Part shown: in pieces, positions 38,714-53,070 of the stretch
Position numbering within the stretch: position 1 is the first letter of the stretch
Layout: each line of letters opens with the position of its first letter
Assembly (NCBI RefSeq): GCF_025264665.1
Contig: NZ_CP073697.1
Span: forward strand, 3,038,001 to 3,102,000
Source: Edaphobacter flagellatus
Lineage (GTDB): Bacteria; Acidobacteriota; Terriglobia; Terriglobales; Acidobacteriaceae
Length of the DNA: 64,000 nt
Reading direction: 5' to 3'
Notes under the pieces: generated by a model
Seen by the model: the letters and a program-made list of their open reading frames with translations, nothing else
Database searches by the model: none
Told to the model about the DNA's origin: nothing
Made by a program: the position numbers and the translations under genes

Positions 38714-38738
38714 GCAGATAAGACTGCTTGCAGGAGGA

Positions 38739-39887
38739 TTGACGCTGACATTTGCACGCTGGAAGAACGAGACTCACCAACCCCTGGTGCTGCATCCACT
38801 GATCTTCATTTCAGGGGCGACTTCGCTCGGGCTTCTGTTCGCCCTGCAGGAGTGGATGGATTCGCGCTTCTGGAACAACCATGTTCAGTTGAGCATTCTG
38901 CTGCAGGCATGGGGTGCTCAGTACTTCATCTGGGGTGTTCTGTGCTGGATCGTGTGGTGGACGATGCGTCGTCATATCTACACGGCAGACCTTAAGAAGA
39001 TGCTGCTTCTGTTTCTACCCATGAGCATCTTTGTCAGCGTGCTGGAAGAGGCGATATGGGTGATGCTGTTTCCCAGTCTTCCGATGGGAAAGCCACCGAT
39101 GCCGTTTTTGCAACGCTTGTCGTTCCATCTTGATGCAGAACTGGTCGACAGCCTTGTGATTTTCTGGTCGGCGTTCTTTCTGTTTAAGGGGATTGGCTAT
39201 TACCTGCGCTATCGCGAGAAGGAGCGCATGGCTGCGCAACTGCAGGCGCAGCTTGCGAATGCGCAGATGCGTGCGCTGCGCATGCAGTTAAATCCACATT
39301 TTCTGTTCAACACGATGAACAGTATTTCGAGCCTGATGCAGACCGATGTTCCTGCAGCGGATCTAATGCTGGAACAACTCAGTCGTCTGCTGCGTATTAC
39401 GTTGCATCGCGGGGATGCGCAGTTCATCCCATTAAGTGACGAGATGGAGTTTATTGAGATGTATCTGGCCATGCAGGACCGCAGGTTCGCCGGACGTGTA
39501 CGGCAACAGCTGAATGTCGAGCCTGACCTGCATGACGCTTTGGTGCCTGCCATGATTCTTCAACCGATTGTTGAGAATGCGTATGCGCATGGCCTGTCGC
39601 GTTTGAGCGCGAATGGCCTGTTGTCGATCGATGCACGGTCAGTAGGTGACGAGGCATTGCGTCTTACGGTGATCAACAACGGTGTGGGGATTCTTCCTGC
39701 AGTGCCGCCGAAGAGCGGCAGCGGTGTTGGATTAGCTAATGTGCGTGAACGGTTGCAGATGCACTATGGCGAAGATCACTCGTTCTCGTTATCGCAGATC
39801 GAAGGCGGTCGAGTTCAGGTCGTTATGACGCTTCCGCTGCGATTTGCGGCAAGCCCAATCGAACAAACAACAGGATACGGTGCGTGA
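38739..39887 (+). CDS. LytS/YehU-type sensor histidine kinase
   Basis: The kinase has several transmembrane helices (LIFISGATSLGLLFALQEW, YFIWGVLCWIVWWTM, LLLFLPMSIFVSVLEEAIWV, LVIFWSAFFLFKGIGYYL), then the His_kinase domain. The phospho-acceptor His is in RMQLNPHFLFNTMNSISSL. The N box is in LQPIVENAYAHGL, and the ATPase loop is GSGVGLANVRERLQMHYG. The start is uncertain: AGGAGG at 38732-38737 points to TTG at 38739 (too close) or CTG at 38745; the frame is open back to 38502. Its end overlaps the LytTR regulator start by one base. The pair forms a two-component system. Confidence 0.87.
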   Translation: MTLTFARWKNETHQPLVLHPLIFISGATSLGLLFALQEWMDSRFWNNHVQLSILLQAWGAQYFIWGVLCWIVWWTMRRHIYTADLKKMLLLFLPMSIFVSVLEEAIWVMLFPSLPMGKPPMPFLQRLSFHLDAELVDSLVIFWSAFFLFKGIGYYLRYREKERMAAQLQAQLANAQMRALRMQLNPHFLFNTMNSISSLMQTDVPAADLMLEQLSRLLRITLHRGDAQFIPLSDEMEFIEMYLAMQDRRFAGRVRQQLNVEPDLHDALVPAMILQPIVENAYAHGLSRLSANGLLSIDARSVGDEALRLTVINNGVGILPAVPPKSGSGVGLANVRERLQMHYGEDHSFSLSQIEGGRVQVVMTLPLRFAASPIEQTTGYGA

Positions 39888-40636
39888 TGGTTCAAGCAGT
39901 GTTAGCAGACGATGAGGTTTTGGCGCGACAGAAGCTGCGTCAGCTACTGCGCGAGGTTCCGGAGATTGAGATCGTTGGCGAAGGATCTTCGGCTGCGGAG
40001 ACGATCGATCTGGTGCGCGCGACGAAGCCGGATCTCCTCTTCCTGGATGTACGCATGCCGGACAAGGACGGATTTGAAGTGGTGAATGATCTGGCGGCAA
40101 TGGATACGCCGATGCCGTGCGTGATCTTTACTACAGCATACGATCGCTATGCGCTGCGCGCGTTTGAGATTCATGCGGTGGATTATCTGTTGAAGCCGTT
40201 TACGCTGGAGCGTTTTCGTTCGGCGACGGAGCGTGCACTGGAACAGATCAAGAAGGCGAAGCAGGACCCACAGGGTGCACAGCCGAAGAGCCCGAATGGT
40301 ACGCCCTATACGACGCGCATCGTGTTTAAGTCGAAGGGGCGCATTCTCTTTTTGCCGGTGTCAGAGATTTGCTGGATCGGGGCGGAGGAGAATTATGTTC
40401 GCATCTGTACGCAGTCGGAGACACATCTGCTGCGTGAGACGATGACGCGCCTGGAAGAGAAGCTCGATCCGAATACGTTTATGCGTGTTCACCGTTCGTC
40501 GATTGTGAACCTGCAGTATGTCAAAGAGGTGCGTCCTGAGGTGGACGGCGAATATGGCGTTCACATGCTGAATGGCCAGAAGATCGCCATGAGCCGCGGG
40601 TATCGTTCGCGCATCAAAAGCTGGCTCGATCGCTAA
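39887..40636 (+). CDS. LytTR-family response regulator
   Basis: The product (about 249 residues) has a receiver domain with the phospho-acceptor Asp in LLFLDVRMPDKDGFEV, the conserved TTAYDRYALRAFEIHAVDYLLKPF-type end split as DRYALRAFE and VDYLLKPF, and a LytTR DNA-binding domain (ILFLPVSEICWIGAEENYV, FMRVHRSSIVNLQYV). LytTR proteins activate genes for cell-surface and extracellular functions. It starts at ATG 39887 or GTG 39884, overlapping the kinase stop. Confidence 0.9.
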   Translation: MVQAVLADDEVLARQKLRQLLREVPEIEIVGEGSSAAETIDLVRATKPDLLFLDVRMPDKDGFEVVNDLAAMDTPMPCVIFTTAYDRYALRAFEIHAVDYLLKPFTLERFRSATERALEQIKKAKQDPQGAQPKSPNGTPYTTRIVFKSKGRILFLPVSEICWIGAEENYVRICTQSETHLLRETMTRLEEKLDPNTFMRVHRSSIVNLQYVKEVRPEVDGEYGVHMLNGQKIAMSRGYRSRIKSWLDR

Positions 40637-40671: not shown

Positions 40672-41823
40672 TTAATTCTTTGTCGATGGTTCAAGCAGGC
40701 TGTCGACGCAGCCGGTGGGCTTGTTGACCGGGTTGCAGCGTGCAACGAGGCCATCGGGAAATTTCACCACAAATGGAGTCCACTGTGATGGCTCAGCCGG
40801 AGGGTAGTCGGTGCTGATCATCTGCGCTCCGCTAGAGAGTGCAAGGTCGCGGCGCCGTGTGTCGTTGGTGCGTGCTGCCTCGGTTCCCTCGTCAGTGCGT
40901 GTGCGGACGAGATAGCCTTTGCTGACGAGCGCATCGATGGCTTCCTTCGTGCCGTCGTTCTGTTCGATGAAGGCTGTCTCCGGCTGGCCGGGGTCGGAGT
41001 TGGTGAAGAGAATGCGTCCCTTCAGCGAAGGGTGTCCCTTGGCGTAGATGGAAGTGACCTTGTGCTGATCCATCAGGAAGATGACTTTGCCGCGTGCATG
41101 CGCGAGTGTGGGCCAGCCACCGGCTAAAACAGCGGCTTCCAGCGTCTTTGCGGAGCCGCGGACGACATCCGGCGTGATGATCTCGGCGGGCTTGAAGACG
41201 GAGCGAATCTCGGCATCGAGTGCGTCGAAGACTTCAGATGTAAACGGCTCGGTCTTAACGGCTTCGGGCATCTCCTTCATATCGCCTTCCTTGGTCTCGA
41301 CGAGGATGAAGATGGGCAGATGGTTGGGATGCTGCTTCGACCAACTTCTCACCACAGTAAGGCAGGCGACGAAGGTGTGACAGGTGCTGCGCTGATCGAT
41401 GTCCTGCATGTGCATGACCTTGAAGCCGGGCTTGTCCATTTCGTGATTTGGATCGAAGTCGGGATCGGCGGGAAGTCCGGCTTTGACGACGGCGTCGTCG
41501 ATTTTGGGGTGAGCGAACCGGCCACCTTTCGCGTCGGCAAAGACGTCGATCTCAATCTGACGGACGCCGGAGCTGAGTTGATCGGGCAGCGGAGCGTGGC
41601 GATAGTCGAGGCTGCGGAGCGCACGGGGGTTCTTCATCTCCATATACTTTCGCTCGCTGGGTGCGAAGCCGGCGTGATAGCTGTTGTGCGATCCGATCAC
41701 CTGAATCTGGTTGATGTGAACGATCTTGTCCTGCGCTGCCTGCGTGGTTTGCTGCGCACCGGCGAGGCTTGCTACGGATACGGCCGAGGCTGCTACCGCT
41801 GTCTTCCATGCACTGTGAATCAT
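40672..41823 (-). CDS. Secreted PI-PLC-like phosphodiesterase (copy 1)
   Basis: The start is the ATG at 41823, 5 bases after AAAGGAA, giving 383 residues with a signal peptide (TAVAASAVSVASLAGAQ). The fold is PLC-like TIM barrel: catalytic His in NQIQVIGSHNSYHAGF, metal ligands in GVRQIEIDVFAD, second His region in FKVMHMQDIDQRSTCH, and FILVETKEGDM. This is the Ca2+-dependent phosphoinositide phospholipase C-like family, which cleaves phosphatidylinositol to diacylglycerol and inositol phosphate. It is 91 bases downstream of a TonB receptor gene on the same strand, so probably cotranscribed. A second copy is at 47693. Confidence 0.83.
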   Translation of the reverse strand: MIHSAWKTAVAASAVSVASLAGAQQTTQAAQDKIVHINQIQVIGSHNSYHAGFAPSERKYMEMKNPRALRSLDYRHAPLPDQLSSGVRQIEIDVFADAKGGRFAHPKIDDAVVKAGLPADPDFDPNHEMDKPGFKVMHMQDIDQRSTCHTFVACLTVVRSWSKQHPNHLPIFILVETKEGDMKEMPEAVKTEPFTSEVFDALDAEIRSVFKPAEIITPDVVRGSAKTLEAAVLAGGWPTLAHARGKVIFLMDQHKVTSIYAKGHPSLKGRILFTNSDPGQPETAFIEQNDGTKEAIDALVSKGYLVRTRTDEGTEAARTNDTRRRDLALSSGAQMISTDYPPAEPSQWTPFVVKFPDGLVARCNPVNKPTGCVDSLLEPSTKN

Positions 41824-41914
41824 CCTTGTTCCTTTCAGCATGTAACGATCTTCGTACAAAAAATGAGGGCGCCGTACAGTAACGGCGCCGCTCGAAGGTA
41901 AGGTGCAGCAGCGC

Positions 41915-44900
41915 CTAGAAGATGATCTTCGCGGCGAGCTGCAGTTGGCGAGCTGGGAAGTTGCTGGTGATCTGGCCGAAGCTGGAACCACCAAACGTGG
42001 TGTTGGCGCCCATGTAGTTGACCTTGTTCAGCACGTTGAATGCTTCGGCGCGGAAGTCGAAGTTCGACGTATCGCTCCAGAGCGGAAATGCCTTATGCAG
42101 GCCGAGATCGGCCTGATAGAAGGCGTTGGAACGTCCCAGGTTACGCGATGCGTTGCCCCAGGGATCGGCCGAAGTGATCGACGCGTCGGTGGGAAGAACG
42201 AAGGCGCTGTTGTTGAAGTAGCCCGAGAGGGCGGTCGCCGTCTTGGTCTTGGTTGCGCCGTAGATGGACTGACCGGCCACACGGTAGGGCCGATAGTTCA
42301 CCAGGTCGGAGACATACATCGGGTTGCTGTTGGAGAGCGAGTAGGTGATGTTGAGCGGAAGGCCACTGGTCATGGTGTTGATCAGCGTGAGCTGCCATCC
42401 ACCGAGAACCGTGTTGGTCAGACGTCCCGATGAACCGCCCCAGTGATGTCCGTGACCGTAGGGAAGGTCGTAGACGACGGAGAGGGTGTCGGCGAGAGGC
42501 TGATCATATCCGCCCGGGCCGTAGTCGCGGCTTGGATTGGCGAAGTTGACGCGCGAGGTGTCGCCGTTCGAGGTCTCGAGGTGTCCCGAGGAGATATCGA
42601 AGTAGCGGCTCCAGGTGAAGGAGTTCAGCAGGTAGAGGCCCTTGGTGGCGCGCTTCTCAAGCTTGAACTGGAGCGAGTTGTAGTTGGCCGAGCCACCGCC
42701 GTATGCCACCTCGATGCCGGCGAAGTTTGAGATCGGACGACGAGGCTGCAGGCTTGTTGCGCACCCAGCACCACGGCACGGAGTGCCCTGATTGTAGTCG
42801 GCCAGGATCTGCATGTGGGTGCTCTTGTTGCCGACGTAGGCCAGGTCAGCGGTGATGCCATAAGGCAGCTGGCGCTGGATACCGAACTGATACTGCTGTA
42901 CGTAACCGGTCTTGAGGTTCTTCGGAATATAGCGTGAAAGAACGTTGAGCGGATTGAAGTAAGCCGCGGTAGTGAGGTTTGCCGCATAACCCTGCTGTGT
43001 CTGACGGAAGCAGGTGGATTGCAGCTGCGTGTCGTTCTGGCAAAGCGAAGCCGCTGTCGGTGCTACCTGCGGAGAGATGTTGGCGTTGACGACGTCGGGG
43101 CCGTTGTAGGTGAGATTGTTTTCGCCACCTGCACGGTTCCACTGCGTGTAAACGATGCCGTAGCCTCCACGGATGACCGTCTTGTCGTTAGCTGAGTAAG
43201 CGAAGCCGAAGCGAGGAGCCCAGTTGTTGAGCGGAGTGTTGACCAGCGAACGGCTGTAGACGCCGCCGGAACGGGCGTGAATCAGTGACTTCGTCGAAGG
43301 ATCGAAGTTCGAGAGGCGGTTGTCCTTCTCGTACTGCGGCGTCACGATCTCATAACGCAGACCAGCGTTGATGGTCAGCTTGGGCGAAATCTTGATGTCG
43401 TCCTGGAAGTACATGAAGTTGTAACGCTGACGCAGATTGACGACGGCGTAGGTCGTGATGGAGTAGGCGGAACGGTTGCCGAACATGAAGTCGGCGAGGT
43501 TCTGCGCCTGCTGCAACTGCGAGCTAAGCGATGGAGCGCCGCTTGCGATGCTGGTGTTGAGCGGGTTGCCGCCGTTGGTTGTCTTGTCGGCAGAGTACTG
43601 ACCGAGGTAGTTGTCCTGGCCGTAGCTGGGGTTGAAGTCATTGAGGACTGTGTTGACGGCCTGCCACTCATAACCGAACTTCATGGAGTGCTTGCTCTTG
43701 ATCCAGGTGAAGTTGGCTTTGGGGTTGTAGATGGTTGGGTTCTGGAATTGCGGGTTCGAGGACTGTGCGCCGAACTGCGAGTAGCCGGTGACCGACTGCG
43801 CGTTTAGAGAGCGGACGACAAGCGGAGCTGTGGGCAGGCCGTCGGTGATGCCATTCTCGACGAGCATCGAGCTCTGACCCTGACCGATGGGGAATTTGCC
43901 ACCCTCGTTCTTAGACCAGCCGAAGCGGATGTCGAGCAGCTTGTTGGCCGAGATCGTCCAGGTGGCACCACCTGCGATGTTCTTGTTCTTGATGTTGACG
44001 TTGCCGTTGGAGTTTCCGCCTGCGCGTCCTGGGATGCCTGGAGGATCGAAGAGATAGCCCTGGTGCTGGCTGTAACGACCGAAGATGGTCCAGTGGTCAT
44101 TGAAGGTGTGATCGACGCGTCCGTCACCCTTGTCGTCGTTGATGATGCCACGGGGGGTAATGGCGTAGTTGTTGGAGAGGATTGCTGAGTTGTTGGGCGT
44201 GGGCAGCGCACCGATCACCGCGCGGGCAAAAGGCGTCATGTCCGCAAGTGGGATCTGTCCCAGGTATTTCTTGCCTGTGATGGGGTTCGTGAGCGGAATG
44301 GCGTTGTTCGGGTTTGTTGCGTTGTCGTTCAGGTAGAACAGGCCGTTGCGCTGGTTGACCGAAGGCAGCGTCGAGGTCGTATTGGCGTTGTTGAAGATCT
44401 GCCGCACACCCTCGTAGTCGGCGAAGAAGAAGGTGTGGTCTTTCCAGATGGGGCCGCCAAAGGTTCCGCCGAACTGGTTGCGGATGAACTTGGGTTTGGT
44501 GGCGCCGGCGGCATTGAATGGGCCGATGGCGTTTAAGCTGGTGTTGCGGATGTAGTCCCAGGCGCGACCGTGGAACTGGTTGGTGCCACGGCGGACTGCG
44601 GCGTTGATGACGGCGCCGGGGTTGCGACCGTATTCGGCCGAGTAGTTGTTCGTTTCGACGCGGAACTCGCTGACAGCGTCGGGCGAGGGCGGAATATTCT
44701 CGTTAGCGAAGCCCTGGTTGGAGGTGCCGTAGTTGTTGTTGTCGAGACCGTCCAGCAGATAGTTATTGAAGGCCGATCGCAGACCGTTGATGTTGAAGGA
44801 GCCTTCACGGCTGGAGGTTCCATTGTTCTCAAGCAGCGACTTGCGTGCGCCAGGAACCAGCAGAACGAGGTCGGCGTAGGAGCGGCCATTCAGCGGGAGG

Positions 44901-45412
44901 TCTTCGACCTGCTTGGTACCGATGACGGTGGAGTGGGAGCTGGTTTCGGTGTCGAGCAGCGCCGCGGCCGAGGTGACGGTGACCTCTTCGGAGACGGAGC
45001 CGGCCTTCAGGGAGACGTCGACGCGCTGGCGAGCGTTGGTCAGCACAGCAAAGTTTTCAGTCACAGTGCGGTTGAAGCCCTGGGCCTCGGCTGTGACCTG
45101 GTAGTTGCCGATCTGGACGCTGGCGAACTCGTACCTGCCTTCGCTGTCCGTCTGCTTCGTCTGTTTGATACCTGTCCCAACGTTCGTCAGGGTGACATTG
45201 GCATTGGGAACGGCTGCTCCGGAGGCATCGTGCACGTAGCCGAGCACAGATGCCGATTCAAACTGCGCATAGGCTGGCATGCTGCCTGTCAGCAGGGCTG
45301 CAACCAGGGTGAGAATCCATACACAGGCTGCACCGAAGATGGGGTGCAGCGGGTTTCGTTGGCTGGGAGATTGTCCATCCTTTTCGGACTTCAAATGAAG
45401 GTCAGCGTTCAT
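41915..45412 (-). CDS. Oar-like TonB-dependent receptor
   Basis: This 1,165-residue receptor starts at ATG with GAGAGG 8 bases upstream. A hydrophobic signal ends at MPAYAQ (about residue 50). Residues 55-140 form the carboxypeptidase-regulatory-like domain (SVLGYVHDASGAAVPNANVT). The plug (about 145-300) has LPLNGRSYADLVLLVPGAR, NYLLDGLDNNNYGTSN and GAVINAAVRRGTNQFHGRAW. The barrel ends AAKIIF. The downstream PI-PLC gene and the inositol oxygenase upstream suggest an inositol-containing ligand. Two LacI-style motifs lie in its upstream region (45574-45587 and 45762-45775). Confidence 0.92.
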   Translation of the reverse strand: MNADLHLKSEKDGQSPSQRNPLHPIFGAACVWILTLVAALLTGSMPAYAQFESASVLGYVHDASGAAVPNANVTLTNVGTGIKQTKQTDSEGRYEFASVQIGNYQVTAEAQGFNRTVTENFAVLTNARQRVDVSLKAGSVSEEVTVTSAAALLDTETSSHSTVIGTKQVEDLPLNGRSYADLVLLVPGARKSLLENNGTSSREGSFNINGLRSAFNNYLLDGLDNNNYGTSNQGFANENIPPSPDAVSEFRVETNNYSAEYGRNPGAVINAAVRRGTNQFHGRAWDYIRNTSLNAIGPFNAAGATKPKFIRNQFGGTFGGPIWKDHTFFFADYEGVRQIFNNANTTSTLPSVNQRNGLFYLNDNATNPNNAIPLTNPITGKKYLGQIPLADMTPFARAVIGALPTPNNSAILSNNYAITPRGIINDDKGDGRVDHTFNDHWTIFGRYSQHQGYLFDPPGIPGRAGGNSNGNVNIKNKNIAGGATWTISANKLLDIRFGWSKNEGGKFPIGQGQSSMLVENGITDGLPTAPLVVRSLNAQSVTGYSQFGAQSSNPQFQNPTIYNPKANFTWIKSKHSMKFGYEWQAVNTVLNDFNPSYGQDNYLGQYSADKTTNGGNPLNTSIASGAPSLSSQLQQAQNLADFMFGNRSAYSITTYAVVNLRQRYNFMYFQDDIKISPKLTINAGLRYEIVTPQYEKDNRLSNFDPSTKSLIHARSGGVYSRSLVNTPLNNWAPRFGFAYSANDKTVIRGGYGIVYTQWNRAGGENNLTYNGPDVVNANISPQVAPTAASLCQNDTQLQSTCFRQTQQGYAANLTTAAYFNPLNVLSRYIPKNLKTGYVQQYQFGIQRQLPYGITADLAYVGNKSTHMQILADYNQGTPCRGAGCATSLQPRRPISNFAGIEVAYGGGSANYNSLQFKLEKRATKGLYLLNSFTWSRYFDISSGHLETSNGDTSRVNFANPSRDYGPGGYDQPLADTLSVVYDLPYGHGHHWGGSSGRLTNTVLGGWQLTLINTMTSGLPLNITYSLSNSNPMYVSDLVNYRPYRVAGQSIYGATKTKTATALSGYFNNSAFVLPTDASITSADPWGNASRNLGRSNAFYQADLGLHKAFPLWSDTSNFDFRAEAFNVLNKVNYMGANTTFGGSSFGQITSNFPARQLQLAAKIIF

Positions 45413-45573
45413 CGATTTGCCTCTCGTATTCGGTAAGTCGTTTATTTCCCGTCTTTGATCGTTGTTGGGCCATAGTCCACGGATTAGCCTTTTTCAGGCC
45501 ATGAGTGAATGAGTTATGTGGACGGCGCAACAGTACTGGTGCAATGTTTGCTTTGTCAATAAATTTTCACAAA

Positions 45574-45587
45574 CTATATCGCTAACG
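45574..45587 (-). promoter_or_regulatory. Weak LacI-style operator-like site (site D)
   Basis: On the minus strand it reads CGTTAGCGATATAG, sharing 9 of 14 bases with the site upstream of the inositol oxygenase, including GTTAGCG in one piece. It is 162 bases upstream of the TonB receptor start codon. Because the second half-site is poor, this is a tentative call. Confidence 0.3.
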
Positions 45588-45761
45588 TAATTCGCAGAGA
45601 GTTAGATGGAAAATATTGAAAAATATATAGTTGTCGTTGTTTGCTGCTAAGTTTAGCGTCAACGTGATTTGCCTATGCCGGCATGTTCAGCGCTGCCGCA
45701 GTCTGATAAAAGATTTCATTTGCGTAAGCCTATTTTGCCGGGGCAAGATCAATCTCAAGTA

Positions 45762-45775
45762 AATAAGCGGTAACG
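45762..45775 (+). promoter_or_regulatory. LacI-style operator-like site (site C)
   Basis: AATAAGCGGTAACG shares 11 of 14 bases with AGTTAGCGGTAACT, including the uninterrupted AGCGGTAAC core. It is 350 bases upstream of the TonB receptor start codon, between that gene and the inositol oxygenase terminator. Confidence 0.4.
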
Positions 45776-45803
45776 CTCCGTGACCTTGTCACAAAAACGG
45801 CAA

Positions 45804-45838
45804 AAAAATCCCCCGGATTGCGTATCCGAGGGATTTTT
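45804..45838. terminator. Intrinsic terminator after the inositol oxygenase gene
   Basis: A 15-base-pair stem with one mismatch (a G-T wobble on the minus strand) and a 5-base loop has A/T-rich outer arms that supply a T run in both directions. It lies 20 bases past the stop codon of the minus-strand inositol oxygenase gene. Confidence 0.8.
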
Positions 45839-45857
45839 ATTGGTATTCAGGCTGGAA

Positions 45858-46721
45858 CTACCAGGCGATCTTTTCGGGGAAGAATTCGGCGAAGAGGTCG
45901 TCGTAGTAGGGCTTGAGTTCCTTCATATTTGGTTTGGTGTGCCCCTTGGAGTAGAGGTCGTAGGGGTTGAACTGGTTGACCCAGTGAAGGCTTTCTTTGT
46001 CCTTCTCGTTCATCAGGTGCTGGTAGGCACCATGGCGGTGCCAGGCGTAGAACGAGTGATAGCGCAGCATGGCGAGCGCCGAATCGGGCAGGTAAGGCTT
46101 CATCACTTCATAGATGTAGCCATCGTGGCCGAAGGACATGTGCACATTGTCCAGCCCGCAGTTTGGCTCATAGATGCCGCACTGGGTGTTGTACTTCGGG
46201 TTGGCGTAATCGGCGTTCGCCTTGAAGTATTCGGGGAAGACGATCTTGTCAGAGTAGGCACAACCCACGGGGAATGTGTCGCCTACGACGCCCCACTGCG
46301 GCTCTCCCCAGAGACAGAGGACTTTGCCGAGGTCGTGAATGAAGCCGGTCAGGACGAACCAGCGGGGGTGGCCGTCTTTGCGGATGGCTTCGGAGGTCTG
46401 CAGCAGGTGTTCGATCTGGGTGAGATCCGTATCCGGGTCGCTGTCATCGACGAGCGTATTCAGGAACTCGGCAGCCTCCCAGATGGACTTCATGCCCTTG
46501 TTCAGGCTGAAGTACTCCTTCTCTTTTTGCATTACGTAGTCGAAGGTCTGGTGGTGGTGGTTCAGCCGGTAGAATTCAGCGACGCCGGGATTGGCCTTTT
46601 CGTCGTACTGGCGAAATTCCTCTTCGTTCTTGCCTTCTTTGTAGCGGCCCTGCAGAAACTCGTCCCACTCCTCCATGTCTTTTCCAAGGGGAGCATTGGG
46701 TGCCAGTGTTGTCGTCGCCAT
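45858..46721 (-). CDS. myo-Inositol oxygenase (MIOX-like)
   Basis: The ATG at 46721 (6 bases after GGAGG) gives 287 residues, close to the 285 of the human enzyme. MIOX is a di-iron HD-domain oxygenase that cleaves myo-inositol with O2 to D-glucuronate. All six metal ligands of animal MIOX have counterparts: H105 ([13 protein letters not shown]), H129 and D130 ([10 protein letters not shown]), H199 ([12 protein letters not shown]), H222 (RYHSFYAWH), D255 (NPYDLYSK). [16 protein letters not shown] and ELKPYYDDL are also near-identical to eukaryotic MIOX. It is a single-gene unit with a terminator downstream and a LacI-style operator 28 bases upstream. Bacterial inositol catabolism usually uses IolG dehydrogenase, so this route is less common. 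Confidence 0.92.
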
Positions 46722-46748
46722 TTCCATCCTCCGTGCGGCCCACCGCAA

Positions 46749-46762
46749 AGTTACCGCTAACT
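46749..46762 (-). promoter_or_regulatory. LacI-style operator upstream of inositol oxygenase (site A)
   Basis: On the minus strand AGTTAGCGGTAACT: arms AGTTA and TAACT are exact inverted repeats around a centre containing CG, the layout of LacI-family operators. It lies 28-41 bases upstream of the oxygenase ATG, where it would overlap the transcription start. The same motif occurs at 52912-52925 upstream of the sugar permease unit; the LacI gene between them (50377) is the natural candidate to bind it. Confidence 0.6.
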
Positions 46763-47088
46763 ATAGGCTCCATGTAAGACGGCTGGCAAGCGAAAAAAGC
46801 TTCACCTGGTGGAAGAAATTCCCGAAGGTCCCGAGGTACAGGACTCAGATCGTGATTCGTGGCCAGGCGCCTGTTTTCTGCCATGCCAATGTTTTTCTTC
46901 GAAAGTGCTTCCGGTCAACCACATAGCTTCTGGAATGTTGGGAGATCGGTGAAACGGCTCATATTCCATTCGGGCTCTTCTGTGGAATTGCAGTTCGTCA
47001 CAATCCGCATCGAAAACGGATCTTGCGGTCCTGTTTCCTCATATGTGCTCTCTAAACTGGCATGCAGCCCTAAAGCTGAATAGAGGAG
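46763..47088. other. Intergenic region between inositol oxygenase and DinB-like gene
   Basis: These 326 bases separate two divergently transcribed genes. I see no coding frame, repeat or convincing promoter apart from the operator-like site at its left edge. Confidence 0.4.
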
Positions 47089-47646
47089 ATGTTTGCGAAT
47101 ATGCGAAAAAGTATGCTGTCGATTCTTGCCGTTGCGGCACTCAGTCTTCCATTGACGGCGCAAACGCCGGCACCTAAGCCGCCCACCACATTGAGGGGCG
47201 TTCTGCTGGAACAGCTTCGCAGTACACATAATGTGGCGCAATGGTTTGTTCCGGCCAATACTGCCGTCGAAGGACTGACTGCCGAACAGGCCAAGTGGAC
47301 CGACGGCAAGGGCAATCATTCCGTCGGACAGCTTACATATCATCTCGTCTTCTGGAATAAGACTGAGCTGGCCAGCTTCAAGGGGGAGAAACCACCGGCT
47401 TTCAGCGGCAACAACGACGAGACATTCAACAACTTCGATGCCGCCCAGTGGTCTGCTCTCGTGCACGAACTGGACCAGGTGTTGACGGAGTGGGAGAAGG
47501 CTGTCGAAGCTGCCGACGATAAAAAGATTTCGGATAAGGCATCGTTGCTTGCCCACGTCGGTGCGCATAATGCTTACCACATTGGGCAGATCGTCTTCGT
47601 CCGTAAAGAGCAGGGATCGTGGAACCCGGAGAAGGGCGTGAAATAA
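47089..47646 (+). CDS. Secreted DinB/YfiT-like four-helix protein
   Basis: This 185-residue protein has a signal peptide (SMLSILAVAALSLPLTAQ) and the DinB-like metal-binding helical bundle. His residues lie in the usual three positions: RSTHNVAQWF, GQLTYHLVFWNK and HVGAHNAYHIGQIV. DinB-family proteins bind a divalent metal; members include thiol-dependent transferases and hydrolases, but many have no assigned role. Export is unusual but seen in Acidobacteriota. ATG 47089 lies right after GAGGAG; ATG 47101 may be the actual start. The PI-PLC copy 2 gene follows 46 bases later. Confidence 0.78.
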   Translation: MFANMRKSMLSILAVAALSLPLTAQTPAPKPPTTLRGVLLEQLRSTHNVAQWFVPANTAVEGLTAEQAKWTDGKGNHSVGQLTYHLVFWNKTELASFKGEKPPAFSGNNDETFNNFDAAQWSALVHELDQVLTEWEKAVEAADDKKISDKASLLAHVGAHNAYHIGQIVFVRKEQGSWNPEKGVK

Positions 47647-47692
47647 CAGCGTCGTTTACGTGTTCCTTACACGCGGTGCATACGATGGGTCT

Positions 47693-48895
47693 GTGATCAC
47701 CAATAAACTATGTTTCGCTTTACCGGCAATCGTTGTGTGCCTTGTTTCTTCATCCATGTGCGCACAGAGCAGTGATGGGCTGAGACTGAATCAGATTCAG
47801 GTCGTTGGCACGCATAACAGCTACCAAATGCCAGCTGACCCGCGCGTGATGAAGATAATGGGGCCGCGCCTTAAGCCTCTCTTCGAGAGTATGCAGAAGA
47901 ACATGCCTCCTGATCAGGCTGCTGTCATGAAAGAGGAACACCCGAATCCGTTGACGGACAGCTTTACGGATGCGCTGGATTACATCCAGGCGCCACTCGA
48001 GATGCAGCTGCGGGCTGGCGTGCGCAGTCTTGAGCTCGATCTGCAGGCCGATCCACAGGGAGGACTGTACGCCAATCCGCTTCCCTATCGGGAGTTGCGC
48101 CAGGCGGGCGAAAAAGATCTGGCGCCCATCTATGAGGAGCAACTTCGTCAGCCTGGCATGAAGGTCTTTCATCTTGCCGATGTAGACTTCCGCAGCCAGT
48201 GTCCGCGATTTCATCAGTGCCTTACGCTGTTGCGTCAGTGGTCTGACGCGAATCCCGGCCATAGTCCTGTCTTCATCCTGCTGGAGCCGAAGTTGTCGGG
48301 GCTGGAGAAGGTTGTCCCGGGTGCGAGCGCTGTAGGCGCATTCGACAAGGCGGCCTTCGACGAGGTGGATGCGGACATTCTCTCGGTCTTCGGGCGCGAC
48401 CGGCTCTTCACGCCGGATGATCTGCGCGGCAAGCACAGCACGCTTGAGGGGGCTGCGCTGGCCAATGCGTGGCCACAGGTCACCGCGGTGCGCGGCAAAT
48501 TTCTATTTCTGTTTCTTGTGCCTGGTCTGAATCTCAAAGCTTTTGCACCCTATCTTGAGGGACATGATTCGCTTGAGGGGCGTGTCGCTTTTGTGCAGGG
48601 ACTGCCCGGCATGAAGCACACGGCTTTTGTCATGGTCGACAACGCATTGGCCAAGCCCGGTCGCGTTTCTGATCTCGTCCGGAAGGGTTATATTGTGCGG
48701 TCTCGGGCTGATATCGATACGTGGGAGGCTCGCCATGATGATGTGCATCGCAAAGATGCGACGCTTGCCAGCGGTGCACAGATCATCTCGACCGACTACC
48801 CGCAGTCACCGAATATCTATGGCAACGACTATCAGGTTCAGCCCTTTGCCGGGGGCTTTCGCTGCAACCCAGTCGTTGCCAGTTGCGCAAAATAG
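47693..48895 (+). CDS. Secreted PI-PLC-like phosphodiesterase (copy 2)
   Basis: Starting at GTG 47693, the 400-residue protein has a signal peptide (CFALPAIVVCLVSSSMCAQ) and the same layout as copy 1 at 40672: catalytic His in NQIQVVGTHNSYQM, metal ligands in GVRSLELDLQAD, MKVFHLADVDFRSQCPRF, FILLEPKLSG, and a shared C-terminus (LASGAQIISTDYPQSPN). The two copies are clearly diverged, so they may cut different lipids or glycerophosphodiesters. It may be cotranscribed with the DinB-like gene. An in-frame GTG at 47660 is an alternative start. Confidence 0.82.
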   Translation: MITNKLCFALPAIVVCLVSSSMCAQSSDGLRLNQIQVVGTHNSYQMPADPRVMKIMGPRLKPLFESMQKNMPPDQAAVMKEEHPNPLTDSFTDALDYIQAPLEMQLRAGVRSLELDLQADPQGGLYANPLPYRELRQAGEKDLAPIYEEQLRQPGMKVFHLADVDFRSQCPRFHQCLTLLRQWSDANPGHSPVFILLEPKLSGLEKVVPGASAVGAFDKAAFDEVDADILSVFGRDRLFTPDDLRGKHSTLEGAALANAWPQVTAVRGKFLFLFLVPGLNLKAFAPYLEGHDSLEGRVAFVQGLPGMKHTAFVMVDNALAKPGRVSDLVRKGYIVRSRADIDTWEARHDDVHRKDATLASGAQIISTDYPQSPNIYGNDYQVQPFAGGFRCNPVVASCAK

Positions 48896-48913
48896 AAGGC
48901 AGCGAAACGGGTC

Positions 48914-49213
48914 TCAACCGCCTGCGATCGCGCCGATGACCAGCAGCGGCTCGGCTCCTGTCGCGACTTCTGCAGGGAGCGGAGCGTCGGGGGATTCGTG
49001 CGAGAGATCGCGTTCGCAGGCGAAGAGGCGCATGAAGGCTCGTCGCTGCTGCGTTGCCTGATCGCGAATTGTGCCGCGTAGCATCGGGTAGGCCTCTTCT
49101 AGTGCGTTGAGCACGGAGCGTTGTGTCGCAGCGCCTTCGATTGTGACTTCGACTTCGCCTTTGATCTGCGCCAGCGTTCGCAGATGAGTAGGCAGTTGTA
49201 CGCGCACGATCAT
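48914..49213 (-). CDS. MoaD/ThiS-like ubiquitin-fold protein
   Basis: This 99-residue beta-grasp protein ([20 protein letters not shown]) ends in Gly-Gly (VIGAIAGG), the feature that lets MoaD, ThiS and relatives carry sulfur as a C-terminal thiocarboxylate. Its start overlaps the stop of the BNR-repeat gene (ATGA). No molybdopterin or thiamine genes are nearby, so its job is probably tied to the propeller partner or to an unlinked activating enzyme. The function is unknown. Confidence 0.78.
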
Positions 49214-50325
49214 GCCAGCGTCTGCACCTCGACCGAGAGCACGGCGGGAAGATCGCGCACGATGGGCGTCCAGCTATCGCCTGCGTCGGGCGACATGTAC
49301 ACCTGTCCGCCGGTCGTGCCGAAGTAGATACCGCATTTGTCGAGCGAGTCGACGGACATGGCATCGCGCAGCACGTTGACGAAGCAGTTGCTCTGCGGAA
49401 GGCCTTTCGTGAGCGGCTCCCACTCATTGCCGCCGGTGCGGCTGCGGTAAACGCGTAGCTGGCCGTCGAGCGGATAGTGCTCGCTGTCGCTCTTGATGGG
49501 GACCACGTAGATCGTTTCCGGTTCATGCGCGTGCACGTCGATGACGAAGCCGAAGTCGGTGGGCAGGTTGCCGCTCACCTCGGTCCACTGGTCGCCTGCG
49601 TTGTCCGAGCGCATGACGTCCCAGTGCTTCTGCATAAAGAGCACGCCGGGGCGGCCGGGGTGCATGGCGATGTGGTGGACGCAGTGGCCGACCTCTGCAT
49701 CGGGATCGGGGATGAACTGCGACCGCAGGCCGCGGTTGATGGGCTTCCAGGTCTCGCCGCCATCGTCGGTTCTGAAGGCGCCTGCTGCGGAGATGGCGAT
49801 GTACATGCGCTTTTCGTCGCTGGGGTCGAGGATGATGGTGTGCAGGCACATGCCGCCTGCTCCGGGCTGCCAATGTGGGCCGGATCCGTGCTTGCGCAGG
49901 CCGGGCATCTCCTGCCAGTTCTGGCCGCCGTCGGTGGAGCGGAAGATGGCCGCGTCCTCAACGCCCGCGTAGACGAGGTCGGGATTTTTGAGTGAAGGCT
50001 CGATGTGCCAGGCGCGCTTGAACTCCCACGGATGCGGTGTGCCGTCGTACCACTGGTGCGTTCCGGGAACGCCATCGTAGGCGAAGTTGTTGCCGACGAC
50101 CTTCCAGGTTGCTCCGCCATCATCGGAACGCTGCATGACCTGCCCGGACCAGCTGCTGGACTGCGAGGCATAGATGCGGTTCGGATCGGCCGGAGAGCCC
50201 TTCATGTGATAGATCTCCCAGCCAGCGAAGTGCGGCCCACTCACCTGCCAGTTTTCGCGCTTGCCGTCGGATGTAAGGATGAAAGCGCCTTTGCGCGTGC
50301 CAACCAGAACTCGAACTTTGCTCAT
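49210..50325 (-). CDS. BNR/sialidase-like beta-propeller protein
   Basis: The 371-residue protein consists of repeated Asp-box (SxDxGxxW) blades: [69 protein letters not shown] and [12 protein letters not shown]. It is widely labelled exo-alpha-sialidase or glycosyl hydrolase, but the catalytic Arg triad of sialidases is not evident. There is no signal peptide, so it should be cytoplasmic. It forms an overlapping pair with the MoaD-like gene. Its function is unknown. Confidence 0.8.
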
Positions 50326-50376
50326 CAGGACTGCCCTCTCGGAAGATGATGCGCGGCCGATCGGATCAAAGCCGCG

Positions 50377-51396
50377 TTATGAGGCTTGCTTCCCCAGCGT
50401 CGAGGCTCGCGCCACCAGAGTGGGGGGTACCAGAATACTCTTTGGGGGCTGCTCCGGGGTATTGACCAGATCCAGGGCCATTTCTCCAGCCAGGCGGCCG
50501 AGCTCGGCCGTGTTGTGGTCGATGGAGCTGAGAGGAATTTTCAAATAATCGTTGTAGCGCATATTGCCGCAGCCGATGAGGGCGATGTCTTCGGGGACAC
50601 GTAAGCCGGCAGCCAGTGCAGCGTTGATGGCCCCGATGGCCGAGAGATCGTTGTAGCAAAAGACCGCGTCGGGTGGCTCGGGCAGCGCAAGAAGCTGTTG
50701 CATGGCTTTGGCTCCGGCGACGTCGCCTGTTTCCTCCAGCCGGTTACAGACGATGACGTACTCCTCAGGCGCGGGGAGACGCGCTTCGGTGAGCGCATTG
50801 CGGTAACCGCGCAAACGATCGTAGGCGGGACTGGTGTTCTGCCCAGCAATGTGGGCGATGCGCTTTTTGCCGGACTGGATGAGATGCTTCGTGGCCATCT
50901 CGCCGACGAGAACATCGTTGGAGCCGACGAAGTGAGCCGCCAGGTGAGGGAAGTTGCGGTCGAAGAGCAGGTACGGCGTGCGCTCGTCACCCAGCTCGTA
51001 GAAGTTGCGCAGGCTGGGCTGGCAGGAAGCAATCAGCAGGACATCGATGCCGCGGCGCAGCAGAGTGCGGATCTCCTGACGTTCCATCTCGGGGTCTTCT
51101 TCCGATGAGGCGAGGATCAGGGCGCGATTGCTGGTTCGGAGTACGCTGCTGAGCGATTTGGCGAACTCGGCGAAGAAGGGATGCACGAGGTCGGGGACGA
51201 CGAGTCCGACGGTGTAGGTCTTGCCGCTGGCCAGCCCCCGAGCAAGCATGTTGGGCTGATAGTTCAGCTCCTTCATGCGTTTGAGGACGCGACGGCGGGT
51301 CTCCTCGCCGATGTCCTTGTTGCCACGCAGAACCTTCGAGACGGTGACGACCGAGACGCCCAGGTCGCGCGCAATATCCTTGAGCCGTACTGCCAT
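50377..51396 (-). CDS. LacI-family transcriptional regulator
   Basis: The 339-residue repressor has the LacI helix-turn-helix (LKDIARDLGVSVVTVSKVLR), hinge helix (NYQPNMLARGLASGKTYTVG) and a periplasmic-binding-like effector domain (LVVPDLVHPFFAEFAKSLSS, FDRNFPHLAAHFVGSNDVLV, DAVFCYNDLSAIGAINAALA, IGCGNMRYNDYLKIPLSSID). It lies 62 bases downstream of the sugar permease on the same strand. LacI-style motifs occur upstream of the permease unit and of the inositol oxygenase, so I infer it controls both. The effector could be inositol or a product of it. Confidence 0.9.
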   Translation of the reverse strand: MAVRLKDIARDLGVSVVTVSKVLRGNKDIGEETRRRVLKRMKELNYQPNMLARGLASGKTYTVGLVVPDLVHPFFAEFAKSLSSVLRTSNRALILASSEEDPEMERQEIRTLLRRGIDVLLIASCQPSLRNFYELGDERTPYLLFDRNFPHLAAHFVGSNDVLVGEMATKHLIQSGKKRIAHIAGQNTSPAYDRLRGYRNALTEARLPAPEEYVIVCNRLEETGDVAGAKAMQQLLALPEPPDAVFCYNDLSAIGAINAALAAGLRVPEDIALIGCGNMRYNDYLKIPLSSIDHNTAELGRLAGEMALDLVNTPEQPPKSILVPPTLVARASTLGKQAS

Positions 51397-51458
51397 AACT
51401 AAGCCATCCTACCGTTTTCTCGCGGAGGGAGGGGAAACAATCTCCTGCCTGAGGCAGA

Positions 51459-52748
51459 TCAGCAGAATTTTGTCCTGCGCCAGAGGCTCCATCCGCCTAT
51501 GACAAGACTGACGAACAGTAGGACTCCCAGGACGCCGATCCACATCAGATTCATGTTCAGCGGAGGAACGACGGCGCGGACGCCGAGCCAGAGGAAGACT
51601 CCCGTGGCGGCAGAGACGATGGCGTAGTCCCACCAGCGACGGCGTTCGGAGCGGTCCCCGAACTCGTCGCCTGCCTGCGAGGCAAGGGTGCGGTTGTAGT
51701 CCAGGCCGTAGCGCTCGCACTCGCGCAGGACGGCCTCGTTCTGCGAGGTGTGCTCGCGGGCGGAGGCCACAGCCGTGCCAATAGCAAGAGCTCCGAGGAT
51801 CATGATGACTGACCCGCCGAGAACAAGAAGCCTGTGTCTGGAGTCGGCTCCGGCGAGCTCGCCGAAGACGAGCGCTCCCCAGGCCAGTCCCCAGAGCTGG
51901 TTGGTGTTCGAGAGTGGGATGCCGCGCCCGATGCCCAGATATTTGGCGGCGAATTGCTGGAAGAGATCGCCGATGACCCAGACGAATCCGCCAAGGAAGA
52001 GCCAGAAGACAAGGCCGTGGTGATGGAAGAGATTAAACGAGGGCGAGTGCAGGCCGCCATCGAGCGCAAGCGTGAGTGCGAAGACCGTTCCCAGTTCGCC
52101 GACGGTGAAGGCCGTCACGAAGGAGAGCGGATTCATACCGCTGATGTAGGCCTTACGGTAGGGAACATACATCGTCCCCCACATGAAACTGGCCCCTATG
52201 GCGGCGAGGATGCCTCGCCCGGCGTGCTGGGCCATGGTGGTGTCTCCATGAAGCGTGCTGAAGCCGAGCATGATGGCAGCAATGACGATGGCGACTCCGC
52301 CGAGGACGACTTTGCCGATATTGGCCGGGCTGGCGCCTGCCAGCTCCTTGAACAGTACGCGACCCCAGAAGAGACCGATGAGAGAGTTCGCGTTCCACAG
52401 CGGGAAGGCGATGGCCAGACCAACATCACGGATGGCAAAGACGGTCAGCGTATTAGCGACTGCCCAGAGTGCTCCAGCCAGCAACGCCCATACAATGAGG
52501 TGCTTCTTCTCCATCAGGTCGGCGAAGACATAGCTGGTCCCTTTAAGAAGAGTGGGGAAGGTCCAGCGAGCGGTAAAGACGCCCGCAACCATGCAGAGTG
52601 AGACGGCGAAGGGCGACAAGCCGGCGTTCACCAGCTTCGTGGGCGCTTCGGCGGCTCCCAGCCAGACCCCGGCCGTAAGACCGCAGATCACACCCAGCCC
52701 ATGCAGCGACATGCCGTGCCGCGTTGCTTTCTGTACGACGCTTGCCAT
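51459..52748 (-). CDS. GRP/RhaT-like sugar permease
   Basis: This 429-residue membrane protein has about ten transmembrane helices in the drug/metabolite transporter fold, with LGVICGLTAGVWLGAAEAPT at the start, IAFPLWNANSLIGLFWGRVLFKEL and IPLSNTNQLWGLAWGALVFGEL as paired half-site motifs. This matches the glucose/rhamnose (GRP, RhaT) uptake group. An extra loop (about 325-370) and a C-terminal helix (LMWIGVLGVLLFVSLVIGG) follow. Beside the LacI gene and with an operator shared with the inositol oxygenase, it may carry inositol or another polyol. The 34-residue protein at 52758 ends within its ribosome-binding site. Confidence 0.82.
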   Translation of the reverse strand: MASVVQKATRHGMSLHGLGVICGLTAGVWLGAAEAPTKLVNAGLSPFAVSLCMVAGVFTARWTFPTLLKGTSYVFADLMEKKHLIVWALLAGALWAVANTLTVFAIRDVGLAIAFPLWNANSLIGLFWGRVLFKELAGASPANIGKVVLGGVAIVIAAIMLGFSTLHGDTTMAQHAGRGILAAIGASFMWGTMYVPYRKAYISGMNPLSFVTAFTVGELGTVFALTLALDGGLHSPSFNLFHHHGLVFWLFLGGFVWVIGDLFQQFAAKYLGIGRGIPLSNTNQLWGLAWGALVFGELAGADSRHRLLVLGGSVIMILGALAIGTAVASAREHTSQNEAVLRECERYGLDYNRTLASQAGDEFGDRSERRRWWDYAIVSAATGVFLWLGVRAVVPPLNMNLMWIGVLGVLLFVSLVIGGWSLWRRTKFC

Positions 52749-52757
52749 TCCTTACTC

Positions 52758-52862
52758 CTAGTGAATCCAGACCAGCAGGGCAATACCGGCTACCAGCACG
52801 AAAAAAGGCACCAGAAAGTGGCTGTCCGTGATCACAGCCTTTGTTTTCGTAGCAAAATCCAT
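52758..52862 (-). CDS. 34-residue single-helix membrane protein ahead of the permease
   Basis: ATG at 52862 is preceded by AAGGA with a 7-base spacer. The product is a short polar N-terminus (MDFATKTKAVITDSH) and one hydrophobic helix (FLVPFFVLVAGIALLVWI), ending in His. The stop codon TAG is part of TAGGAG, the ribosome-binding site of the permease, so translation of the two is probably coupled. It may be a small subunit or chaperone of the transporter. It is too short for routine gene calling. Confidence 0.65.
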   Translation of the reverse strand: MDFATKTKAVITDSHFLVPFFVLVAGIALLVWIH

Positions 52863-52911
52863 GAAGTGTTCCTTATGGCTCGTTTTGCGAGATGGAGTCG
52901 CGCCTACATAA

Positions 52912-52925
52912 AGTTAGCGGTTACT
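52912..52925 (+). promoter_or_regulatory. LacI-style operator upstream of the permease unit (site B)
   Basis: AGTTAGCGGTTACT differs at one of 14 positions from the site upstream of inositol oxygenase. Flanking bases extend the outer arms to AAGT/ACTT. It lies 50-63 bases upstream of the small membrane protein's ATG, where it would overlap the promoter. Confidence 0.6.
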
Positions 52926-53070
52926 TCAAAAGAAAAACCCTACAGAGCGGCATCACGACTGTCAATCGAAATACGGCCAGGAGTATCTTCACTTGCCTCT
53001 TGATCATAATTCCGGTTCGGGTCCAAAAAATTTCATAACCGCGGGCAAGGTTGCCTGTCTAATGCGCTGA

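What the first reader, a model, noticed from the sequence alone, without database searches (positions are those of the whole stretch)
40672..52925. Possible LacI-controlled phosphoinositide/inositol scavenging regulon with a eukaryote-like MIOX
Within 12 kb lie two secreted PI-PLC-like enzymes, a TonB receptor cotranscribed with one of them, a myo-inositol oxygenase with all six metal ligands, a LacI regulator and a GRP/RhaT-type permease. A combined route (PI-PLC release, outer-membrane uptake, inner-membrane uptake, oxygenation to glucuronate) is not one I know as a described bacterial system; most bacteria use the Iol dehydrogenase route. The inositol phosphate made by PI-PLC would need a phosphatase, which is not seen here.
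Basis: partly seen in the sequence, partly recalled or inferred. Interest (0 to 1): 0.85.

Follow-up and report, generated by a model that had tools for sequence, protein, structure and literature searches.

The report
Inositol supply-and-disposal switch in soil bacteria
A soil bacterium appears to run its inositol economy from one DNA-binding switch that acts on genes for making inositol, freeing it from lipids, importing it and burning it, with the switch sites kept in the same places in many related species.

Summary
The genes are as described: MIOX with six metal-ligand residues, an Oar-like TonB receptor followed by a PI-PLC-family enzyme, a second PI-PLC-like gene, LacI and a GRP-type permease. 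A near-palindrome (GTTAGCGSTAAC) overlaps the MIOX -10 box; a matrix built only from MIOX sites finds it upstream of GRP-LacI, of receptor-PI-PLC and of the unlinked INO1 gene (myo-inositol-1-phosphate synthase) in many relatives. Spacing to predicted promoters is regular: 21-25 bp past the start of -10 at GRP, 21 bp upstream of -35 at receptor-PI-PLC (13 of 24 rows), mostly 29 bp upstream of -35 at INO1. A LacI ortholog occurs in 16 of 150 family genomes; 15 have MIOX and 13 PI-PLC. Best reading: an inositol thermostat like corynebacterial IpsA, extended to scavenging and disposal, in which PI-PLC opposes MIOX and does not feed it. In this genome itself the INO1 site is weak, the receptor sites are moderate, and the bare pattern is not enriched. 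The second PI-PLC has no operator. A conserved membrane microprotein of about 30 residues precedes GRP. Binding, effector, signs and enzyme activities are untested.

The parts
50377..51396 (-). LacI-family regulator (339 aa)
   Evidence: Pfam LacI and Peripla_BP_3; ortholog at >=60% identity in 16 of 150 family genomes
51459..52748 (-). GRP/DMT-type sugar permease, candidate inositol permease
   Evidence: Pfam PF06800 46.8 bits; within 5.5 kb of MIOX in 24 of 39 family loci with MIOX; in 37 of 41 MIOX genomes and 22 of 109 without MIOX
52758..52862 (-). 34-aa single-span membrane microprotein directly upstream of GRP
   Evidence: motif search gave 41 of 50 GRP loci, 40 after dropping one plain false hit (L073); pN/pS 0.39 over 38 unique sequences; no NCBIfam or Pfam match
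52913..52924 (.). LacI operator at the GRP-LacI promoter (GTAACCGCTAAC on the minus strand)
   Evidence: matrix score 19.9; 1-mismatch match in genome scan; site in 21 of 22 GRP upstream regions of close relatives, 21-25 bp after the first base of -10
52937..52965 (-). predicted sigma70-like promoter of GRP-LacI (TTGACA-N17-TAGGGT)
   Evidence: sequence
45858..46721 (-). myo-inositol oxygenase MIOX (ATG 46721 preferred; longest ORF to 46748)
   Evidence: PF05153 E 1.1e-108; ligand residues aligned to 2huo/2ibn
46750..46761 (.). LacI operator overlapping the MIOX -10 box (GTTAGCGGTAAC)
   Evidence: only exact match to GTTAGCGSTAAC in the genome; score 25.5; present in 26 of 27 aligned upstream regions of close relatives
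46760..46789 (-). predicted MIOX promoter TTGCCA-N18-TATAGT
   Evidence: alignment of 27 upstream regions; sequence
45790..45850 (-). intrinsic terminator after MIOX
   Evidence: hairpin plus T run, -23.1 kcal/mol, z -4.47
45761..45776 (.). distal LacI-operator-like site of the receptor-PI-PLC unit (score within background range on its own)
   Evidence: score 10.9; a site 320-370 bp upstream recurs in several relatives
45573..45588 (.). proximal LacI-operator-like site, centre 21 bp upstream of the -35 box
   Evidence: score 12.2; 21-bp spacing in 13 of 24 rows
45530..45559 (-). predicted promoter of receptor-PI-PLC, TTGACA-N18-TACTGT
   Evidence: sequence
41915..45412 (-). Oar-like TonB-dependent receptor
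   Evidence: Plug, OMP_b-brl_4 and CarboxypepD_reg; a receptor of >=45% identity stands before PI-PLC in 8 of 21 PI-PLC loci outside the MIOX neighbourhoods
40672..41841 (-). secreted PI-PLC-C1 family enzyme (PI-PLC 1)
   Evidence: PF16670 E 3.6e-140; weak sequence match to solved PI-PLCs 5fyo and 3h4w
47660..48895 (+). second PI-PLC-C1-like gene; probably not in the regulon
   Evidence: PF16670 E 8.5e-99; no site >=5 between 46764 and 52910
49210..50325 (-). BNR/sortilin-repeat protein downstream of LacI
   Evidence: Pfam; beside LacI only in L034 and L282, L283

Best explanation
The locus holds most of one LacI-controlled inositol regulon. Without its effector (most likely myo-inositol, by analogy with IpsA) the LacI protein sits on GTTAGCGSTAAC-type sites. 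There it blocks MIOX and its own GRP-LacI operon, where the sites overlap -10 or the start of transcription. At the same time it helps transcription of the INO1 synthase and of the TonB receptor-PI-PLC pair, where the sites lie just upstream of -35. Low inositol therefore means make it and free it from phosphoinositides; high inositol means release of LacI, uptake through GRP (possibly with its small membrane partner), oxidation by MIOX to glucuronate, and onward flow into the UxaC pathway encoded elsewhere. Shown by computation: the genes, the operators, their geometry in close relatives, conservation and co-occurrence. Inferred: that this LacI binds them, the effector, the direction of regulation at each promoter, and the substrates of GRP and the receptor.
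For: The operator matrix was built from 12 MIOX sites only. Without the duplicate L286 it finds sites >=9 in 20 of 21 GRP and 19 of 23 receptor upstream regions of close relatives, against means of 0.30 and 0.72 (maxima 5 and 8) for 200 permuted matrices, and in 27 of 53 INO1 upstream regions against a mean of 0.90, maximum 11. Spacings: MIOX, GRP and receptor, INO1. In 72 named MIOX loci, 20 of 20 that also hold a LacI of >=68% identity have the operator at MIOX, against 3 of 52 others. In family genomes the operator at MIOX is in 11 of 14 LacI-positive and 1 of 26 LacI-negative genomes, including G035, G064, G066 and G101, where LacI is not beside MIOX. LacI x MIOX 15 of 16 against 26 of 134; LacI x PI-PLC 13 of 16 against 9 of 134. 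In genus g32 (G031, G095) the operator sits at MIOX, at INO1 and at an unlinked receptor-PI-PLC pair. In G064 receptor, PI-PLC and LacI form one run. Precedent: IpsA, a LacI-type protein, activates ino1 and lets go of DNA with myo-inositol, with sites upstream of -35 when activating and over -35/-10 when repressing (PMC3899939, passages and sections 8 and 16 read).
Against: No binding or expression data. The bare pattern is not enriched genome-wide: with one mismatch it gives 20 rows in this genome against 82 for the reversed control, and exact GTTANCGNTAAC is about as frequent as its control in the eight genomes scanned. In this genome the INO1 site is weak (7.5); the receptor sites (12.2, 10.9) are little above two unrelated hits in the window (10.4 and 9.7). 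INO1 has a site in 7 of 15 LacI-positive family genomes with INO1; G035, G066, G128, G148, G149, G114, G016 and G138 lack one. Of the 13 genomes with LacI and PI-PLC, eight have a receptor-PI-PLC pair with an operator; G101 has the pair without a site >=10, and G035, G128, G148 and G114 showed no such pair in the stretches read. LacI paralogs beside TonB receptors have near-identical sites (GTTATCGGTAAC), so cross-binding is possible. In g32 no TTGACA promoter was found next to the receptor operator, so the activator geometry does not hold there. Promoters are consensus predictions, and the INO1 promoter pattern was drawn from the same alignment. Fisher values ignore shared ancestry.
Confidence: 0.6

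Rival explanations
1. Purely catabolic regulon: LacI represses everything, and inositol induces PI-PLC, receptor, permease and MIOX together so that phosphoinositides are eaten through glucuronate.
For: The same operator at MIOX, GRP and receptor-PI-PLC; Terriglobus roseus has PI-PLC directly behind MIOX (L307); in g32 the receptor operator lies close to the start; UxaC, UxaE-like and gluconokinase genes are present. Edaphobacter paludis is reported to grow on myo-inositol (PMC11354219, passage).
Against: INO1, a synthesis gene, carries the operator in many relatives; sites at receptor-PI-PLC and INO1 lie upstream of -35 at regular distance, unlike those at MIOX and GRP.
Confidence: 0.23
2. 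INO1 and MIOX work in series as a plant-like de novo route from glucose 6-phosphate through inositol to glucuronate, with LacI switching both on together.
For: INO1 and MIOX share the operator in many relatives; INO1 is in 140 of 150 family genomes.
Against: MIOX is in only 41 of the 150; site geometry differs between the two promoters; it does not explain PI-PLC and the receptor.
Confidence: 0.08
3. The sites at receptor-PI-PLC and INO1 are read by other LacI paralogs with the same half-site, and the LacI next to GRP controls only GRP and MIOX.
For: A paralog (38% identity) next to a TonB receptor with GTTATCGGTAAC lies in this genome, and a similar one in G034; in G066 a LacI of 53% identity lies near the receptor-PI-PLC pair.
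Against: PI-PLC co-occurs with this LacI clade (13 of 16 against 9 of 134); LacI sits in the receptor-PI-PLC run in G064; among the family INO1 upstream regions examined, sites at 88-127 bp were seen only in LacI-positive genomes.
Confidence: 0.15

Closest known systems
IpsA of Corynebacterium glutamicum and relatives (PMC3899939)
   Same: LacI-type protein, palindromic operator with central CG, ino1 as target, site upstream of -35 at ino1, both activated and repressed targets
   Different: IpsA was described for inositol lipid and mycothiol synthesis; MIOX, PI-PLC or a TonB receptor are not among the targets named in the parts read; orthology was not tested here
Iol regulons (IolR and others; recalled, and cited in PMC3899939)
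   Same: Inositol catabolism under a dedicated regulator
   Different: Here the first step is an oxygenase (MIOX) giving glucuronate; no iol family appears among the nine window proteins scanned; genome-wide absence of iol genes was not tested
MIOX plus hexuronate cluster of some Francisella strains (PMC3479022, passages read)
   Same: Bacterial MIOX next to glucuronate catabolism
   Different: There MIOX lies with Uxu/Kdg genes and a sugar symporter; no INO1, PI-PLC or LacI operator linkage is reported in the passages read
Ca2+-dependent bacterial PI-PLC (PDB 3h4w, 5fyo)
   Same: Matched by sequence, secreted
   Different: Here paired with a TonB receptor and an operator; the sequence match to solved enzymes is weak and partial

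Membership tests
Myo-inositol oxygenase (MIOX) | Whole-domain match | tested here: met
   PF05153 363 bits against cut-off 25
Myo-inositol oxygenase (MIOX) | Six di-iron ligands (4 His, 2 Asp; motifs recalled) | tested here: met
   Alignment to 2huo/2ibn and motif positions
Myo-inositol oxygenase (MIOX) | Converts myo-inositol to glucuronate | not testable with these tools
   Needs an enzyme assay
Ca2+-dependent PI-PLC (PF16670) | Whole-domain match | tested here: met
   467 and 331 bits, cut-off 29.9
Ca2+-dependent PI-PLC (PF16670) | Catalytic residues of solved enzymes | tested here: inconclusive
   Only partial alignment to 5fyo/3h4w; GSHNSYH-type and E.D motifs seen, their role recalled
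LacI family | LacI HTH plus periplasmic-binding core | tested here: met
LacI family | Near-palindromic operator with central CG (bound in vitro) | tested here: inconclusive
   Conserved site found by computation; binding not testable here
IpsA (as ortholog) | Sequence orthology to C. glutamicum IpsA | not tested
   IpsA sequence was not fetched
IpsA-like function | Operator at ino1 upstream of -35 | tested here: met
   29 bp before -35 in 18 site instances, 46 bp in 8, others at 15-51 and once 109; no site >=7.2 in 22 of 53 regions; weak (7.5) in this genome
IpsA-like function | Myo-inositol releases the protein from DNA | not testable with these tools
   Needs a binding assay
RhaT/GlcU symporter (TIGR00776) | Score over curated cut-off | tested here: not met
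   40.7 bits against 319.6; only the broad Pfam PF06800 is met
Iol inositol regulon | iolG/iolB/iolD/iolE-type genes under the regulator | not tested

The most novel reading that the evidence does not exclude
A bacterial inositol thermostat. One LacI protein activates both inositol synthesis (INO1) and inositol recovery from phosphoinositides (TonB receptor-PI-PLC) and represses uptake-for-disposal (GRP permease with an unannotated membrane micro-subunit of about 30 residues) and oxygenation (MIOX), giving a prokaryotic counterpart of eukaryotic INO1/MIOX balance. The permease would be the first inositol carrier of the GRP/DMT type (as far as I recall; not searched).
Probability: 0.35. Interest if true: 0.8.

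Novelty: new variant of a known kind. Interest (0 to 1): 0.66.

Why it matters
Acidobacteriota are among the commonest soil bacteria and few of their regulons are known (recalled). INO1 is in 140 of 150 sampled family genomes, so these cells probably need inositol. A regulon that ties its synthesis, recovery from lipids and oxidation to one switch would say how they use plant and fungal phosphoinositides. It also gives ready-made operators, a bacterial MIOX clade and a possible new inositol carrier with a micro-subunit, all testable in cultured Edaphobacter, Granulicella or Terriglobus strains.

Tried and rejected
Rejected: (a) one transcript from MIOX into receptor-PI-PLC, because of the terminator and a separate predicted promoter. 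(b) The second PI-PLC and DinB as regulon members: no operator. (c) The gluconate-dehydrogenase-like/GMC operon as a clear target: sites in G000 and G034 lie upstream, but in G031 the match falls inside the coding start, so left open. (d) The uronate cluster as a regulon member: the sites >=6 in L182 lie at 2537, 7287 and 18183, not at its promoter. (e) The third PI-PLC of this genome (L183): one site of 7.3, away from the gene. (f) RNA families and tRNAs in the window: none.

Literature: (bacterial MIOX with acidobacteria, LacI, TonB/PI-PLC, or Granulicella/Edaphobacter/Terriglobus terms) gave no description of this combination in what I saw; led to IpsA. I read passages of PMC3479022, PMC6353982, PMC11354219, PMC6252331, PMC12935467 and PMC12076931, and passages plus sections 8 and 16 of PMC3899939; all other papers were seen only as listings with the start of the abstract. 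One paper search was left unused.

Not done: a search for iol genes, a search for LacI or MIOX in the further genus members whose INO1 upstream regions were read, structure prediction, and a protein search with the microprotein (one search failed).
Full report
What is there. The window is 64 kb of a 4,445,627-base single-contig genome. The genome has one MIOX and three PF16670 genes. The genus probably includes Edaphobacter modestus, because handle G202 in the same genus has a contig of 6,121,180 bases, the length of the E. modestus record (inference from lengths). I did not identify the strain.

MIOX itself. The protein aligns with solved mammalian inositol oxygenases over residues 39-296 and keeps the HxxQT-, HDLGK-, GHD-, HSFYxWH- and DLY-type motifs that carry the ligands (assignment recalled; positions). 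It is in 41 of 150 sampled family genomes, and a scan of named genomes with its peptides gave 72 loci, mostly Acidobacteriota with some Verrucomicrobiota, Armatimonadota and others. It is therefore a bacterial lineage, not a recent import.

The operator at MIOX. Reading the upstream regions by eye showed the same near-palindrome before MIOX and before GRP. In the window and the 39 family loci with MIOX, a site with at most two mismatches to GTTAGCGCTAAC lies within 33 bp of the extrapolated MIOX start in 12 of 40; L060 (73 bp) and L056 (342 bp) have 2-mismatch matches that I did not count. In the own genome the only exact match to GTTAGCGSTAAC is the MIOX site. With one mismatch there are 20 rows (17 places), among them the GRP site and a site before INO1; the reversed control pattern gives 82 rows, so the bare pattern is not enriched. 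The same holds for exact GTTANCGNTAAC in eight genomes. The case rests on position and conservation, not on counts. In 27 MIOX upstream regions that I chose for closeness from the loci in hand (L286 repeats L036), 26 keep the operator; in 20 it is fused to the -10 box and in six the -10 box lies about 10 bp further upstream.

GRP-LacI. A site scoring >=9 on a matrix built only from 12 MIOX sites lies in 21 of 22 GRP upstream regions of close relatives (not L294), with a centre 21-25 bp after the first base of a predicted -10 box of a TTGACA-N17/18 promoter; in L293 this is the weaker of two sites. Without the duplicate it is 20 of 21, against a mean of 0.30 and a maximum of 5 for 200 permuted matrices. 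Of 29 other GRP loci in hand six reach 9: L058, L062, L073, L052 and L307, which belong to genomes or loci with this LacI, and L051, which does not. The place is repressor-like and autoregulatory.

Receptor-PI-PLC. Twenty of 24 rows have a site >=9; without the duplicate 19 of 23, against a mean of 0.72 and a maximum of 8 for permuted matrices. Of the four without, L188 and L209 have strong sites (18.3 and 21.7) close to the receptor start that fell outside the extrapolated upstream piece; L284 and L295 have none. In 13 rows (12 genomes) the site centre is exactly 21 bp upstream of TTGACA; other distances are 22 (L301), 27 (L296) and 11 (L253); in L342 the sites lie elsewhere; in L189, L290 and L329 no such promoter was found. 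Outside the MIOX neighbourhoods, 8 of 21 PI-PLC loci examined have a receptor of >=45% identity before PI-PLC (G064, G101, G072, G117, G047, G095, G031, G066); sites >=10 lie upstream of the receptor in G064 (12.4), G095, G031 and G066 (13.8), not in G101, G072, G117 or G047. In G064 the pair is followed by the LacI ortholog, and in G031/G095 it carries the operator at a place unlinked to MIOX. These unlinked cases argue that the pair belongs to the regulon and is not only a syntenic neighbour. Against that, LacI-positive G035, G128, G148 and G114 showed no such pair in the stretches read.

INO1. The inositol-phosphate synthase is in 140 of 150 family genomes and lies far from the window (position 111838 on the contig). 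In the family sample, seven genomes, all with the LacI ortholog (own, G034, G130, G098, G064, G095, G031), have a site of score 7.5-13.1 at 88-127 bp upstream; 26 MIOX-negative genomes examined reach at most 4.1; MIOX-positive, LacI-negative G108 and G135 show 9.3 at 243 and 370 bp; LacI-positive G035, G066, G128, G148, G149, G114, G016 and G138 lack a site; the second INO1 copy of G130 lacks one too. In the genus sample 60 genomes were searched and 57 had INO1; 53 upstream regions from 52 genomes were scored (30 given as loci, 20 fetched, three fetched earlier). Twenty-seven reach 9 or more, against a mean of 0.90 and a maximum of 11 for 200 permuted matrices; 31 reach 7.2, 30 of them at 93-133 bp and one at 186 bp. 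A TTG...-N17/18-.ATACT promoter, a pattern drawn from the alignment, was found in 45 of 53; operator centres (score >=7) lie 29 bp before its first base in 18 instances, 46 bp in 8, and at other distances (15-51, once 109) in 12. Whether these further genus members have MIOX or LacI was not tested.

Co-occurrence. LacI orthologs at >=60% identity form a clear group of 16 genomes; the next group is at 54% or less. MIOX is in 15 of these 16 and in 26 of the other 134; PF16670 in 13 of 16 and 9 of 134; GRP in 16 of 16 and 43 of 134. The operator at MIOX is in 11 of 14 LacI-positive and 1 of 26 LacI-negative MIOX genomes (G138 left out because its MIOX is a fragment). In the named set 20 of 20 loci that hold LacI (>=68%) have the MIOX operator, and 3 of 52 others do. 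Fisher values are not corrected for ancestry.

Downstream and missing steps. The genome has one inositol-monophosphatase-family gene and a hexuronate cluster with UxaC, a UxaE-like epimerase, a nickel-dependent hexonate epimerase, a gluconokinase and an SDR. Free inositol and use of glucuronate are thus plausible. The cluster has no good operator site at its promoter (L182); the monophosphatase locus was not scored. E. paludis is reported to grow on myo-inositol and not on glucuronate (PMC11354219, passages); whether it has this regulon was not tested. Two other acidobacteria are reported not to use myo-inositol (PMC6252331, PMC12935467; passages).

Microprotein. Before GRP lies a 34-codon ORF with a ribosome-binding-site-like AAGGA. 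A motif search within 600 bp upstream gave 41 of 50 GRP loci (at least three of the 50 repeat a genome); one (L073) is plainly a false hit, which leaves 40. Peptides of 28-41 residues as called share T-D-x-[HQ]-F-x-x-P or close variants and a hydrophobic span; most lie directly before GRP, a few 100-220 bp away. Nonsynonymous change is 0.39 of synonymous over 38 unique sequences, though the synonymous side is near saturation and the search required part of the motif. No family model matches.

How it most likely works. IpsA of C. glutamicum is a LacI-type protein that activates ino1 when inositol is low, lets go of DNA with myo-inositol, and activates or represses according to whether its site lies upstream of -35 or over -35/-10 (PMC3899939). 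Applying that rule here gives activation of INO1 and receptor-PI-PLC and repression of MIOX and GRP-LacI. That is a thermostat: supply genes on when inositol is scarce, disposal genes on when it is plentiful. My own odds are about 0.9 for LacI control of MIOX and GRP-LacI, about 0.8 for receptor-PI-PLC and INO1 in the genus, and about 0.6 for the opposite signs.

Verdict. No paper describing the combination was found in the searches named in Tried and rejected; the library holds open-licence papers only.

Noticed in passing
window 52758-52862 (-): Conserved, unannotated single-span membrane microprotein upstream of the GRP permease in about 40 of 50 loci.
   Followed up: partly
L220, L211 (own genome and G034): Operator-like sites (GTTACCGATAAC, GTTAGCGGTAAC) just before a gluconate-dehydrogenase-like plus GMC-oxidoreductase-like pair (naming by eye, no family search); in G034 beside a LacI paralog, a kinase-like gene and a TonB-receptor-like gene.
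   Followed up: partly
L221 (own genome, about 2.0 Mb): LacI paralog (38% identity) near a TonB-receptor-like gene with a GTTATCGGTAAC site: paralogs may share the half-site, so cross-talk is possible.
   Followed up: partly
window 38502-40636 (+): Histidine kinase and LytTR-like response regulator next to PI-PLC 1, kept in L034, L036 and in 7 of 72 named loci, one of them L036 again; role in this context unknown.
   Followed up: no
L182, about 9-15.4 kb: Hexuronate cluster with a UxaE-like tagaturonate epimerase, a nickel-dependent hexonate epimerase and a gluconokinase.
   Followed up: partly
L062 and L042, L047, L066, L067: A kinase cluster (PfkB family in L062) recurs near MIOX in 5 of 40 fetched family loci.
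   Followed up: no
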